Origin: an uncultured bacterium
GTDB taxonomy: Bacteria; Patescibacteriota; Dojkabacteria; SC72
DNA length: 41,168 bases
Direction: 5' to 3'
Assembly: GCA_903840015.1 (NCBI GenBank)
Contig: CAIMEL010000013.1
Span: forward strand, 1-41,168
The position numbers and the translations under genes were made by a program. Shown piece after piece: positions 6,556-35,260 of this stretch (within the stretch, counting starts at the first letter, position 1; the number at the start of each line of letters is the position of its first letter). The notes under the pieces were generated by a model. The model had not been told where the DNA came from, made no database searches, and saw nothing but the letters and a program-made list of their open reading frames with translations.

Positions 6556-9474
6556 TTACTCATACTTTGGATAGCAGCACTTCTTGTACTTTTTGCCACT
6601 ACCACAAGGACAAGGGTCATTTCTTCCTACCTTCTTTCCTCTTGTAATAGTTTTGACCTTTCCTACTTTCCCTGGTCGACTATCTTGGTTACTATTTACA
6701 CGAATTGGTGCCTGCTGTTCACGCTTAACTAATCTAACTTTGAAGAATCTTGTTACAACAAACTCATCAATCTTCTTTAGCATTTCATCAAACATAGCAA
6801 AACCCTCATTCTTGTATTCAACAAGAGGATCTCTTTGAGCTAGATTACGCAGAGATATACCCTCTCTGAGATCTGTCATGGTGTCTAAATGCTCCATCCA
6901 GAAATTGTCAAAAGATTGAAGAATCAGATATCTAGAAAGCATCTGCATCGGCTCTATACCGATATTGTAAACATGAGTCATATACCCTAAGAATACTATC
7001 TCCTTTATCAACTTACTTCTTCCTACTACATCAAGCGAGTAAAGTGCTCTAAACATCTCTACAACATCTTTGTAGCCAAGCTCTTTAACTAGTGCAGAAA
7101 GGAGTTCATCAGTAAGCAAGTTCGAAATCTGGATATACAGTTTTCTCTCTTCAATATTATCTATCTGCATATCATCCTGTAACTGCGATGCTACAAGAAA
7201 ATCTACATACTCTAATATCTTTTTAAGTATCCACTTATCCAAGGGAGATACTGGATATTTCAAGCTGTCTAGCTCAGAGATATCCCAAGTATCTTCTCTT
7301 GCAAGAGAGAAGCCATCAAGAGAATCTTGAATTGATTCAAGATCTGCCTCCTTTATTGCTTTCAAATCTGAATTGATATCAGTACTTTTCAAAGCAACAT
7401 CTTTCTTAAAATTCACCTCAAGTATTTTTCTTCTTAAGGTATATATTATTTCCCTCTGTTGATTCAAAACATCATCATATTCAACAAGTCTTTTACGAAT
7501 ATCATAGTTATTTGCTTCCACCTTCTTCTGTGCATTCTCTATGGTCTTACCAAGTATACCCATTGATATTGGCATATCATCTTCCATACCTACCTGAGTC
7601 ATTATCATTTTCATTCTGTCTCCACCAAATATCCTCATCAGATCATCTTCGAATGATACATAGAAAAGAGATTCTCCTGGATCGCCCTGTCTTCCAGATC
7701 GTCCTCTTAGCTGATTATCTATTCTTCTTGATTCATGTCTTTCAGAACCAATTACGTACAATCCTCCTACCTCTTTTACACCATCACCCAATGCAATATC
7801 AGTACCTCTACCTGCCATATTTGTAGCTATTGTCACTGCACCTAATTGACCAGCCTCCGCAACTACCACAGCTTCTCTTTCATGCTGTTTAGCATTTAAC
7901 ACATTATGCTTTATACCTTCTTTAGACAACATACTGGAAAGTAATTCTGATTTCTCTACAGATGTAGTACCTACAAGAATTGGTTGTCCTTTCTCATGAT
8001 GTTCTTTAATATCTTCCACTATTGCTCGGAACTTTCCTTCCATAGTTCGATATACAACGTCATTGAAATCTTTTCGCACCACATCCTTGTTTGTAGGAAC
8101 AACTATGGTATCCAATTTGTATATGGCGGCGAATTCCTCAGCTTCTGTAAGAGCAGTACCTGTCATTCCTGAAAGATATTTGTAAAGTCTGAAGAAATTC
8201 TGCAAGGTTATGGTAGCCATAGTTTTGGATTCCTTCTTTACTTCTACTCCCTCTTTAGCTTCAATGGCTTGATGCAACCCCTCGCTATATCTTCGACCCT
8301 CCATGGCACGCCCTGTAAATTCATCCACTATCAATACCTCTCCATTTCTAACCATATATTCATCATCCAGTTTGTAAAGCTCCTTTGCTTTCAATGCATT
8401 ATCTAGATGGTATGCTAACTGCGCATTCTCATATATATTGTCTACTCCTAAAGCTTTTTCTACTGCGTCCATACCAGATTGATTAAGAGATACCGAATGG
8501 GCCTTCTCGTCTACCACATAATGCTTCTCTGGTTGTAAAGTTCTAACCAATGAAGCAAACTGTCTGTACAGATCATTTGCTGTGTCAGCACTAGTAGAAA
8601 TTATGAGAGGAGTCCTTGCCTCATCAATCAAGATTGAGTCTGCTTCGTCTACTATAACGAAATATTTGGGACCTTGAACTCTCTCCTCCATACTCCTCGC
8701 CATATTGTCACGAAGATAGTCAAAACCAAACTCACTGTTGGTCCCATAGACCACATCGCAAGCATATGTTTCCTGCTTTGAACATTCAACAAGATTTACC
8801 CCACTCATATGGTCATATTTCAATCTCCCAGACTTCTTCTCTTTCTCCTTTCGTTCTTTAATCAACTGTTTTGCATCATCTCCTTTCAATTTGATTACCT
8901 CTTCATCAGATATGAATTTGTACTGTTTTCCTGAGTTAATAGCTCCAACGCTCATACCAAGAGAATGAAGAATATGTCCAGTCCATTCAGCATCTCTTCT
9001 TGCAAGGTAATCATTAACGGTTACTAAGTGAGAACCTCTGCCAGTTAAACCGTACAAATACAAAGGTAGATTAGCTGCCAATGTTTTTCCCTCTCCCGTA
9101 AAAAGTTCAGCCACTTTATTATCAAAAAGCACATATCCAGCCATTAGTTGGACATCAAAATGTCTGTGATTTGCAACTCTCTTGGAAGCTTCCCTTACAA
9201 CAGCAAAAGCTTCAGGAAGTATGTCGTACAGCTTTTTCTTCTCTGTATCCAACTTTGCCTGCAATTCGGTATCTGAAAGAGTTGTGAATTCTGCTTTTGC
9301 ACTTTCTAAATCTACAGAAAGAATTTTTCTAAACTCCTCAGTCTTCTTCCTTAATTCTTCATCTGAGAGTTTAGATATTTCTTCTTCTAAATCATTAATT
9401 TTTGTAATTATGGGCTGTATTTTTTTGATCTGTTTTTCGTTTGAATCGAAAAGAGTACTGAGAAATTTAAACAT
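6556..9474 (-). CDS. secA: Preprotein translocase ATPase SecA
   Basis: SecA drives unfolded preproteins through SecYEG using ATP. The 972-residue protein has the Walker A motif (FTGEGKTLAA), the DEAD-type VDEADSILIDEARTPL, and the helicase motif region GTTSVEKSELL with TNMAGRGTDIAL. The QLRGRSGRQGDPG motif VI is present, as are the helical scaffold and wing regions. The C-terminus carries a zinc-binding SecB/ribosome-contact tail, CPCGSGKKYKKCC. It is longer than the roughly 840-900 typical residues because of a lysine-rich insertion near residue 200 and an extended C-terminal third. The start ATG is at 9474. A TGnTATAAT extended -10 lies 28 bp upstream. It is divergent from the M23 peptidase, itself an exported protein. 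Confidence 0.98.
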   Translation of the reverse strand: MFKFLSTLFDSNEKQIKKIQPIITKINDLEEEISKLSDEELRKKTEEFRKILSVDLESAKAEFTTLSDTELQAKLDTEKKKLYDILPEAFAVVREASKRVANHRHFDVQLMAGYVLFDNKVAELFTGEGKTLAANLPLYLYGLTGRGSHLVTVNDYLARRDAEWTGHILHSLGMSVGAINSGKQYKFISDEEVIKLKGDDAKQLIKERKEKEKKSGRLKYDHMSGVNLVECSKQETYACDVVYGTNSEFGFDYLRDNMARSMEERVQGPKYFVIVDEADSILIDEARTPLIISTSADTANDLYRQFASLVRTLQPEKHYVVDEKAHSVSLNQSGMDAVEKALGVDNIYENAQLAYHLDNALKAKELYKLDDEYMVRNGEVLIVDEFTGRAMEGRRYSEGLHQAIEAKEGVEVKKESKTMATITLQNFFRLYKYLSGMTGTALTEAEEFAAIYKLDTIVVPTNKDVVRKDFNDVVYRTMEGKFRAIVEDIKEHHEKGQPILVGTTSVEKSELLSSMLSKEGIKHNVLNAKQHEREAVVVAEAGQLGAVTIATNMAGRGTDIALGDGVKEVGGLYVIGSERHESRRIDNQLRGRSGRQGDPGESLFYVSFEDDLMRIFGGDRMKMIMTQVGMEDDMPISMGILGKTIENAQKKVEANNYDIRKRLVEYDDVLNQQREIIYTLRRKILEVNFKKDVALKSTDINSDLKAIKEADLESIQDSLDGFSLAREDTWDISELDSLKYPVSPLDKWILKKILEYVDFLVASQLQDDMQIDNIEERKLYIQISNLLTDELLSALVKELGYKDVVEMFRALYSLDVVGRSKLIKEIVFLGYMTHVYNIGIEPMQMLSRYLILQSFDNFWMEHLDTMTDLREGISLRNLAQRDPLVEYKNEGFAMFDEMLKKIDEFVVTRFFKVRLVKREQQAPIRVNSNQDSRPGKVGKVKTITRGKKVGRNDPCPCGSGKKYKKCCYPKYE

Positions 9475-33146: not shown

Positions 33147-33176
33147 TTGCAATAGAGTGGTACTATAGGGTATAAT
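33147..33176 (+). promoter_or_regulatory. Sigma-70 promoter upstream of the GC-rich island gene
   Basis: TTGCAA (33147-33152), 18 bp, then consensus TATAAT (33171-33176). It is flanked by an inverted GGAGAT (33140-33145)/ATCTCC (33175-33180), a possible operator. Transcription from about 33183 would give the island gene a leader of about 170 nt that holds the 20-bp hairpin. The rest of 33073-33354 shows no gene. Confidence 0.55.
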
Positions 33177-33273
33177 CTCCTCGTCATAGATAATATATCT
33201 TTTATGATTATTTCTATACAAATTGCTCTTTAAAAAAGAGGTTATACAAATATTTTTCCTTCCAGGGATGGTT

Positions 33274-33323
33274 CTTTACACAGTATTGCTACTAATTAAT
33301 TTTGGTAATAGTACTGTGTAAAG
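33274..33323 (+). repeat. Long hairpin-forming inverted repeat before the island gene
   Basis: The arms CTTTACACAGTA (33274-33285) and TACTGTGTAAAG (33312-33323) are perfect, and the stem continues inward to 20 pairs with one C-A mismatch and wobble pairs, around a 10-nt AT loop. No T tract follows on either strand, so it is not an ordinary terminator. It ends 31 bp before the ATG and lies at the left edge of the GC-rich island. Confidence 0.8.
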
Positions 33324-33354
33324 GTCACCGTTCAAGTAACAAAGGAAATATAAC

Positions 33355-34137
33355 ATGAAGAAAGTCCTGTATCTGGTTCTTGTACTTTCGCTCCTAATTG
33401 GAGCCGTCGGCGTGCCAACTAGCACAGCGAATGCTAAAGGCACAACCAACCCAGGAATCTTCTGGGCGCACAATTACTGCAATAACAATCATCCCCCCAT
33501 CGATTGGGATCTGTTGGAGCTAATCCTTCAGTCCATAATTGACGGGTCATCCAATGTCACGTATTTTGCCGATGGCCTGAGGGTCATTGCAAACGGGGTG
33601 CATTACAAGCTCCCTTACATGACTGCGGCGGATGATGTTCTGGGGACCATCTTTGATGTGGCTAAAACCCACAAATGGGGTGGCACTCTAACCGGGGACG
33701 CTCTGAAGGCCAAGAAAGCTATAATGCAGGGGGTTGCAAAGCTATGGAAAGATGCCAAGCCAACAACTTTGCAAAAGTGGCAGGAAGCCATCGATGGAGA
33801 GAGGAGTAACTACTCCAATTCGCATTGTCCCGAGAAGAAACGTATTGTCGTCCCCAAGTGGATTCCTGTACCAGTGGCTATACCCAAGCCTGAACCAAAC
33901 CGGATCATCCCAAACCTTTACACAGTTTTGAGTGATGGTAGCGTTCTCCGAGGGTACAACACGGAGGGGGTAACAATCCTGACGAGCTATTCGCTTAGCC
34001 AAAAGCAGATTGATGACATCATCAAAGTTACCTTAGGCACAGCGATTATCGCAGGGACAACATATCTGATAGTACAATCAGGAGGAACTCTCACACCAAT
34101 TGTCATTCCAATGGCATCGATGATGCTGACAAGATAA
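33355..34137 (+). CDS. Secreted protein of unknown family in a GC-rich island
   Basis: The 260-residue protein has a signal peptide (MKKVLYLVLVLSLLIG, cleavage near ANA-KG), a mature part with three cysteines, a proline-rich segment (VPVAIPKPEP, near 185) and a hydrophobic C-terminal stretch (about 225-255) that could insert into a membrane. No family or catalytic motif is recognised. The start is supported by AAAGGA 8-9 nt upstream. Sampled 60-base lines of the gene are about 50-55 percent G+C against roughly a third in flanking genes, with GC-ending codons unusual in its neighbours. This points to recent transfer. Inverted repeats flank it. A secreted effector or toxin is conceivable but not shown. 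Confidence 0.8.
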   Translation: MKKVLYLVLVLSLLIGAVGVPTSTANAKGTTNPGIFWAHNYCNNNHPPIDWDLLELILQSIIDGSSNVTYFADGLRVIANGVHYKLPYMTAADDVLGTIFDVAKTHKWGGTLTGDALKAKKAIMQGVAKLWKDAKPTTLQKWQEAIDGERSNYSNSHCPEKKRIVVPKWIPVPVAIPKPEPNRIIPNLYTVLSDGSVLRGYNTEGVTILTSYSLSQKQIDDIIKVTLGTAIIAGTTYLIVQSGGTLTPIVIPMASMMLTR

Positions 34138-34146
34138 CTTGAGGAA

Positions 34147-34191
34147 AGAGAGAGCAAGGTGTTTCTTGGTGACCTTCACCTTGTTCTCTCT
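34147..34191. repeat. Inverted repeat closing the GC-rich island; possible bidirectional terminator
   Basis: AGAGAGAGCAAGGTG (34147-34161) pairs with CACCTTGTTCTCTCT (34177-34191): 15 pairs including one G-T, 15-nt loop. It lies between the convergent stops at 34137 and 34197. On the minus strand it is followed only by a weak TTTCCTC. The loop holds GGTGACCTT, the exact inverse of AAGGTCACC at 33321-33329. Confidence 0.7.
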
Positions 34192-34196
34192 ACTAC

Positions 34197-35141
34197 TCAA
34201 TCCCTCTTTGTATAACCTCTTTTGTTTCTTAATGCAGAAACTATTTCCAAGTCAGCTTCACCCCAATACATATGTATTAAATCTTCCATTCTTTGTCTTT
34301 TTTCGTCATCCTTAGAAACCATGTCATATATCTCTTGTAAAACATATGCATCAGAACCATGGGATAAACCCGTACCATCAAGAACCTTAGTACAATATCT
34401 AATCATACTCTCTATAACTAGCTCTTCTTTTGAAGGATCACCAGCAACAAGTTCTATTCCTTTTTGGGAGAGAGCAAGTCCTATACCAAATTTATACATC
34501 ATATCTGATGGAGATTTCTCAATATTCTCAATTATAAAATCTAGATTCTCCATAGTAAAATCTAACCCTATATGCATAACAGAAATACCATAAATATCCT
34601 CTAAAACTTTCCTAACATCTTCCCTGGGAAATCTGTCTAGTCCAAAATCAAGGAAAGCAACTTTTCTTAAACCACTCTCCAAAATATTTCCATTACCCTT
34701 AATCCACCCTTCTACACTCTCAACATCCACTATTTTCGAAAAATCCTCAGGTTCTTTTTCATATCTAAATATATACTGCACATCTTCTAAAGAGAGATAG
34801 CATCTGACTGATTGAAGTTTTGAATTAAGAATAGCTTCATAATAATAGCTACTTGAGGATGATCCACCATACACCTCTTTAGGTTCCACTGAAAGGAGAG
34901 AAACTGTGAAATTATCACCTCGTTCTGGCTCTTCTAAAGTTTCCATATCAATAGGCATAGAGAAAAGATTTTCATCTGCTATATAGTTTCCAACCGAACC
35001 AATCTCATACAAATTCTTAAATTCTTTTTTTCTTGGTGCACCCTCTATCTCTTTAGTCATCTCATCATTTAAATCTTCAACCCCTCCCACATATATGTTG
35101 TAATCAGAGCTGTATGAAATTTCTATCTGTTCTTTTTCCAT
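34197..35141 (-). CDS. Hypothetical acidic cytoplasmic protein
   Basis: The 314-residue protein has no signal peptide or membrane segment and is rich in Glu and Asp. It has a Ser/Tyr run near residue 95 (GGSSSSSYYYE), a mixed alpha/beta middle and a helical C-terminal half. No family or catalytic motif is recognised. It lies between the GC-rich island and tRNA-Pro and is read on the same strand as the tRNA, 45 bp downstream of it. Codon use looks like the AT-rich resident genes, so it marks the right border of the foreign segment. Confidence 0.75.
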   Translation of the reverse strand: MEKEQIEISYSSDYNIYVGGVEDLNDEMTKEIEGAPRKKEFKNLYEIGSVGNYIADENLFSMPIDMETLEEPERGDNFTVSLLSVEPKEVYGGSSSSSYYYEAILNSKLQSVRCYLSLEDVQYIFRYEKEPEDFSKIVDVESVEGWIKGNGNILESGLRKVAFLDFGLDRFPREDVRKVLEDIYGISVMHIGLDFTMENLDFIIENIEKSPSDMMYKFGIGLALSQKGIELVAGDPSKEELVIESMIRYCTKVLDGTGLSHGSDAYVLQEIYDMVSKDDEKRQRMEDLIHMYWGEADLEIVSALRNKRGYTKRD

Positions 35142-35186
35142 TATTCTTTATCTCAATTTATCTAGACTGTCCATGTTCCGCTAAAA

Positions 35187-35260
35187 TCGGGGTGACACGA
35201 CTTGAACGTGCGACCTCTTGCACCCCATGCAAGCGTTCTGGCCATCTGAACTACACCCCG
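35187..35260 (-). tRNA. tRNA-Pro (anticodon GGG)
   Basis: The 74-nt minus-strand cloverleaf has acceptor stem CGGGGTG/CACCCCG with the C1-G72 pair typical of bacterial tRNA-Pro and discriminator A. The D arm is GTTC...GAAC. The anticodon arm CTTGC-ATGGGGT-GCAAG gives GGG followed by G37. The T arm is GCACG-TTCAAGT-CGTGT. No encoded CCA. It sits between two same-strand genes with 9 bp upstream and 45 bp downstream, so processing from a longer transcript is likely. Confidence 0.94.

What the first reader, a model, noticed from the sequence alone, without database searches (positions are those of the whole stretch)
33241..34195. Single-gene GC-rich island carrying a secreted protein of unknown family
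The gene and its flanks are about 50-55 percent G+C in sampled stretches, against about a third around it. The gene also has GC-ending codons and a better Shine-Dalgarno than most neighbours. It encodes an exported Cys-containing protein with a hydrophobic C-terminus. A lone foreign secreted gene with inverted-repeat borders resembles an acquired effector, toxin or bacteriocin cassette.
Basis: partly seen in the sequence, partly recalled or inferred. Interest (0 to 1): 0.65.

Follow-up and report, generated by a model that had tools for sequence, protein, structure and literature searches.

The report
Two-gene mobile module, orphan exported protein
A tiny-genome Dojkabacteria bacterium carries a 2-kb pair of genes, one for an exported protein of unknown family, that has moved between two related genera; it is a real acquired module, but what the protein does is unknown.

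Summary
The GC-rich gene is real: 48% G+C, GC3 0.53 against 0.30 for 37 other window genes (z about 6.4). The anomaly is confined to the coding sequence and its terminator; the flanks are 25-35%. It is not a lone cassette. Homology to the one relative found (Dojkabacteria UBA2222, another genus) runs from the promoter -10 box (33162) to just upstream of the convergent 314-aa gene (35161). So the shared unit is about 2.0 kb: exported 260-aa protein plus very acidic 314-aa protein. Both genes are absent from 7 same-genus genomes and from about 380 sampled genomes of the phylum. Here the module lies 26 bp from a tRNA-Pro 3' end, where relative G003 has a different gene; in UBA2222 it sits at an unrelated locus. 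Synonymous divergence is lower than for vertical orthologues, and dN/dS is about 0.09: a functional gene, exchanged after the genera split. The reported inverted repeats are not element borders: the right arm is the coding 3' end of the 314-aa gene. New observation: the leader folds into a strong, conserved hairpin predicted to hide the Shine-Dalgarno in both copies. Function is inferred only: membrane-active exported protein with acidic partner, possibly toxin/immunity, low confidence.

The parts
33162..35161 (.). Shared module: block homologous to L010 4805-6805 (Dojkabacteria UBA2222), 80% DNA identity, no detectable homology immediately outside
   Evidence: blastn
33147..33176 (+). Promoter-like site of the GC-rich gene (TTGCAA, 18 nt, TATAAT); ACTATAGGRTATAATC shared with L010 at the left end of the homology. 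One of 9 hits where shuffles give 7.7, so the pattern alone is no evidence
33224..33354 (+). Structured leader: small hairpin (CTCTTT AAA AAAGAG), long hairpin 33274-33323, and 33255-33261 predicted to pair with the Shine-Dalgarno 33342-33348
33274..33323 (+). Long hairpin, one compensatory change (A-U to G-C) in the relative
33355..34137 (+). SEC260: exported 260-aa protein, signal-like N-terminus, helical N-domain (low-confidence model), C42/C158, Pro-rich linker about 165-186, hydrophobic segment 221-240; GC-rich
34149..34193 (+). Hairpin after SEC260 (GAGAGCAAGGTG...CACCTTGTTCTCTC), probable terminator; 41 identical nt in the relative (34155-34195)
   Evidence: sequence, (I4)
34197..35141 (-). 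P314: convergent, cytosolic, very acidic (pI 4.5, charge about -28) 314-aa protein of unknown family, 73% identical in the relative
33234..33250 (+). Left arm of the 17-nt inverted repeat, inside the leader; not a border
34207..34223 (-). Right arm of the 17-nt inverted repeat; codons near the 3' end of P314
35187..35260 (-). tRNA-Pro(GGG); its 3' end lies 26 bp outside the module. Neighbour, not part of the module

Best explanation
A small accessory module of two convergent genes, exchanged horizontally among Dojkabacteria. Shown by sequence comparison: the 2.0-kb unit (leader + SEC260 + terminator + P314) occurs intact in two genera at unrelated sites, is missing from close relatives, and SEC260 is under purifying selection. 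Inferred: SEC260 came earlier from a higher-GC source, because its partner P314 has ordinary host composition and both copies of SEC260 are GC-rich. Inferred: SEC260 is exported, its helical domain stays outside, and its C-terminal hydrophobic segment contacts or enters a membrane. Its translation is held down by a folded leader that hides the ribosome-binding site until an unknown signal opens it. P314, cytosolic and strongly acidic, is most likely its cognate partner (immunity protein or chaperone/regulator), so the pair would work like an exported membrane-active toxin with self-protection. The acquired-module part is about 0.85 likely; the leader control about 0.45; the toxin/immunity role about 0.3. 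The score below is for the whole statement.
For: Module limits and identity. Protein identities 88% and 73%, against SecA 72-79% between the same two genomes and one 190-aa neighbour 56%. SEC260 dN 0.07, dS 0.78, third-position identity 65%; P314 57%; vertical orthologues 42-54% with dS above 2 or saturated. Absent from 7 same-genus genomes and nearly all others sampled. Sites differ: cc199-[module]-tRNA-Pro here, a different 132-aa gene there in G003, u177-[module]-u150 in UBA2222. Leader: z -4.6 and -5.1, more stable than the leaders of 30 other window genes; SD pairing about 0.8-1.0 here and about 0.6-0.95 over GGAAA in L010. Opposite charges of the two proteins.
Against: Only two copies are known, so linkage of the two genes and covariation in the leader rest on one comparison (one compensatory pair). 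No family, fold or active site supports toxin activity. The hydrophobic segment is weak (maximum 1.75 on a 19-residue scale). The pair is convergent rather than co-transcribed, unlike most toxin/immunity operons. Codon-biased genes diverge more slowly at synonymous sites, which could mimic transfer, though P314 is not GC-rich and also shows it. No mobility gene is present.
Confidence: 0.35

Rival explanations
1. SEC260 is an exported host-interaction or cell-surface protein (attachment, pili or nutrient capture) of an epibiotic CPR bacterium, not a toxin; P314 is an unrelated hitchhiker or a regulator.
For: Signal-like N-terminus, Pro-rich linker and a C-terminal hydrophobic segment suit a surface-anchored protein; strong purifying selection; patchy distribution suits adaptation to a particular host.
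Against: P314 travels with it in both genomes; no adhesin, pilin or other family match.
Confidence: 0.3
2. The module is ancestral to the family and was lost in most lineages; high identity reflects strong constraint, and high GC3 reflects selection on codons or mRNA structure rather than foreign origin.
For: Only two copies are known, so loss elsewhere cannot be excluded formally; strongly codon-biased genes can show slowed synonymous change.
Against: Unrelated sites; absence from 7 same-genus genomes and most of the family; P314, with host-like GC, also shows higher third-position identity than vertical genes.
Confidence: 0.12
3. SEC260 alone is the mobile element, bounded by the 17-nt inverted repeats.
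For: The repeat is perfect here and not expected by chance; GC changes near it.
Against: Homology passes both arms and includes all of P314; the right arm is coding sequence; the repeat is imperfect in the relative; no other copy in the genome.
Confidence: 0.05
4. Assembly or binning artefact.
For: The genome is a multi-contig draft and the composition of the gene is odd.
Against: The same gene-neighbour junction occurs in an independent assembly at 80% DNA identity, whose flanking ABC transporter genes match Dojkabacteria orthologues.
Confidence: 0.03

Closest known systems
tRNA-adjacent genomic islets (general knowledge)
   Same: Accessory genes next to a tRNA 3' end at a spot with different content in relatives
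   Different: No integrase and no duplicated tRNA end found; the UBA2222 copy has no tRNA in its 9 kb
Exported toxin plus immunity pairs (bacteriocin, contact-dependent and polymorphic toxin systems; general knowledge)
   Same: Exported basic protein with a C-terminal hydrophobic segment linked to an acidic cytosolic protein; horizontal transfer
   Different: No family, domain or motif match; convergent genes; activity untested
SD-sequestering leaders (riboswitches, RNA thermometers, ribosomal-protein leaders; general knowledge)
   Same: Long folded leader with the SD in a stem in both copies
   Different: No Rfam family; found nowhere else in 39 searched genomes; ligand or trigger unknown
NCBIfam NF053838 (Bdellovibrio hit locus protein Bd0108)
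   Same: Weak match over the signal peptide region only (residues 1-34, E 0.075, below cut-off)
   Different: Signal-peptide similarity only; not a relative

Membership tests
Horizontally acquired genomic islet | Absent from close relatives | tested here: met
   Absent from G001-G007, same genus
Horizontally acquired genomic islet | Different genomic context in another carrier | tested here: met
Horizontally acquired genomic islet | Atypical composition | tested here: met
   Met for SEC260 (GC3 z 6.4); P314 is ordinary
Horizontally acquired genomic islet | Own integrase/transposase or att repeats | tested here: not met
   Only two ORFs; no duplicated tRNA end. Not obligatory for an islet
Transposon / inverted-repeat cassette | Terminal inverted repeats at the element ends, with target duplication | tested here: not met
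   Repeats are internal to the shared block, right arm coding
Transposon / inverted-repeat cassette | Other copies in the genome | tested here: not met
   Not obligatory
Exported toxin / immunity pair | Exported protein | tested here: inconclusive
   Signal-like N-terminus by hydropathy only
Exported toxin / immunity pair | Known toxin or immunity domain | tested here: not met
   Pfam, PHROGs, NCBIfam, PADLOC, PDB sequences
Exported toxin / immunity pair | Toxicity neutralised by partner | not testable with these tools
   Needs the bench
SD-sequestering regulatory leader | Conserved predicted fold with SD paired | tested here: met
   Both copies; prediction only
SD-sequestering regulatory leader | Covariation | tested here: inconclusive
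   Two sequences, one pair changed on both sides
SD-sequestering regulatory leader | Known riboswitch or leader family | tested here: not met
   Rfam

The most novel reading that the evidence does not exclude
A previously undescribed exported effector/immunity pair of Dojkabacteria, mobile between genera and controlled by a new SD-hiding leader RNA: part of the little-known toolkit by which these reduced, probably host-dependent bacteria act on their host or rivals.
Probability: 0.18. Interest if true: 0.6.

Novelty: new member of a known kind. Interest (0 to 1): 0.33.

Why it matters
Dojkabacteria have very small genomes and, like other CPR bacteria, are thought to depend on other cells; exported proteins that they exchange and keep under selection are good candidates for the tools of that interaction. 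This one has no known family, so it would define a new protein family and possibly a new regulatory leader. As evidence stands it is an orphan acquired module, a common kind of thing in bacterial genomes.

Tried and rejected
Single-gene cassette bounded by inverted repeats: rejected. Repeated element: no second copy in the genome. Phage or plasmid origin: no match in phages, plasmids or viral contigs. Weak hits to SEC260 in G014 (inside a 238-aa ORF with no signal-like start, aligned with gaps) and to P314 in G008 and G018 (these fall in a 491-aa methyltransferase/glycosyltransferase-like ORF and in a MiaA-like gene) are judged spurious. PDB phmmer hits to acetylcholine-binding protein (E 0.7): chance. 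AlphaFold2 with two sequences: pLDDT 35 and 40, too poor for a fold search, which was therefore not run. Other instances of the leader by covariance model: only the locus itself. Perfect 13-nt complementarity between the leader hairpin arm and the coding sequence (33313-33325 / 33914-33926), present in both copies; 1-2 of 300 shuffles reach it; left unexplained. Empty-site comparison against G003: not a clean empty site, because another gene occupies it. Literature: one search on Dojkabacteria/WS6 gave nothing on this gene pair in titles or abstracts; no paper was read.

Full report
Observation. The 260-aa ORF at 33355-34137 exists. Its GC is 0.483 and its third-position GC 0.533, against 0.302 +/- 0.036 for 37 other genes of the contig; by codon usage it is the least host-like of all 38. 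The change is sharp and follows the gene: upstream windows are 0.25-0.35 and GC is back to 0.33 at 34200. So the island is real, but it is the coding sequence and its terminator, not gene plus flanks.

Host. The only close relative found in a scan of 84,980 species genomes is in a Candidatus Dojkabacteria bacterium UBA2222 contig (DCUE01000022.1, L010). It appears to be the same contig as G044:C41 (same length, 9021, and same match), which is placed in the same family as the window's genome but in another genus. The window is a whole contig (C13) of a 680-kb, 97% complete genome.

The unit is two genes. Nucleotide comparison of the window with L010 gives one long block, 33162-35161, 80% identical, and (apart from a 35-nt match elsewhere) nothing else. 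The block begins at the -10 box before SEC260 and ends about 20 nt upstream of the start of the convergent 314-aa gene. The proteins are 88% and 73% identical. The neighbours are unrelated: here a DUF5667 protein gene on the left and tRNA-Pro(GGG) plus an HD-like gene on the right (the HD label is from reading the sequence); in L010 two orphan genes, u177 and u150. A relative of u177 lies in G008 next to an ORF that resembles u150 by eye, in the other order, so the L010 site also lies in accessory DNA.

Presence and absence. SEC260 is missing from all seven same-genus genomes and from 380 genomes drawn across the phylum apart from one spurious hit; P314 likewise. In G003, same genus, the flanking genes are present in the same order and a different 132-aa gene sits between them. 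The 3' side of tRNA-Pro holds different genes in most genomes examined, as expected of an insertion-prone spot.

Transfer. SEC260 has dN 0.07 and dS 0.78 between the two genomes and 65% third-position identity; P314 has dS 1.33 and 57%. Vertical orthologues are more diverged: SecA between the same two genomes 79% aa and 49% at third positions (326 residues); SecA within the genus (G003) dS 2.1 and 54%; other neighbours 42-49% with saturated or very high dS. The module was therefore most likely exchanged after the genera split. dN/dS of about 0.09 shows SEC260 is a selected, functional protein. P314 has ordinary composition, so the high GC of SEC260 must be older than the joint transfer, or selected; an earlier donor of higher GC is the simplest reading, and the donor was not found.

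Inverted repeats. The 17-nt repeat is perfect and unlikely by chance. However, the right arm is the codons for KRGYT near the end of P314, the arms lie well inside the shared block, and in L010 the right arm has diverged while the left has not. It is not a transposon or cassette end. Why a piece of the P314 coding end should match the SEC260 leader is unexplained.

Leader. Between the promoter-like site and the start codon lies about 170 nt that folds far better than shuffles in both copies (z -4.6 and -5.1) and better than the leaders of 30 other genes in the window. A long hairpin keeps its pairing with one double change. Five consensus pairs, UUUCC with GGAAA, put the Shine-Dalgarno in a stem in both copies; pairing probabilities are 0.8-1.0 here and about 0.6-0.95 over GGAAA in L010. 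Rfam has no such family, and a covariance model finds no other instance in 39 related genomes. With two sequences this is a well-founded hypothesis, not proof.

Function. No family in Pfam, PHROGs, NCBIfam, PADLOC or PDB sequences, and structure models are unusable. What the sequence shows: a signal-like N-terminus, two conserved cysteines that could form a disulfide outside the cell, a Pro-rich linker, a weak C-terminal hydrophobic segment, net positive charge; and a linked partner with charge about -28. The reading I commit to is an exported membrane-active protein with a protective or regulatory cytosolic partner (about 0.3 for the toxin/immunity role); a surface or attachment protein is about as likely.

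Verdict.

Noticed in passing
33224-33354: Strong conserved folded leader predicted to hide the Shine-Dalgarno of the GC-rich gene; no Rfam family.
   Followed up: partly
33313-33325 and 33914-33926: 13-nt perfect complementarity between the leader hairpin arm and the SEC260 coding sequence, kept in both genomes.
   Followed up: partly
33987-34047: 61 consecutive identical bases inside SEC260 between two genera whose copies differ at 35% of third positions; may point to recombination or an overlapping element.
   Followed up: no
L055:1011-2040 (G008); L010:4181-4714 and 6814-7266: Two orphan Dojkabacteria families (u177, u150): they flank the module in UBA2222, and look-alikes are adjacent in G008; u177 relatives in six of 39 genomes searched.
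   Followed up: partly
35187-35260 and equivalents in L034-L044: tRNA-Pro(GGG) is a variable spot: most relatives have different genes next to it, in three loci (L037, L039, L041) with small ORFs that look like a HigB/HigA-type toxin-antitoxin (by eye only).
   Followed up: no
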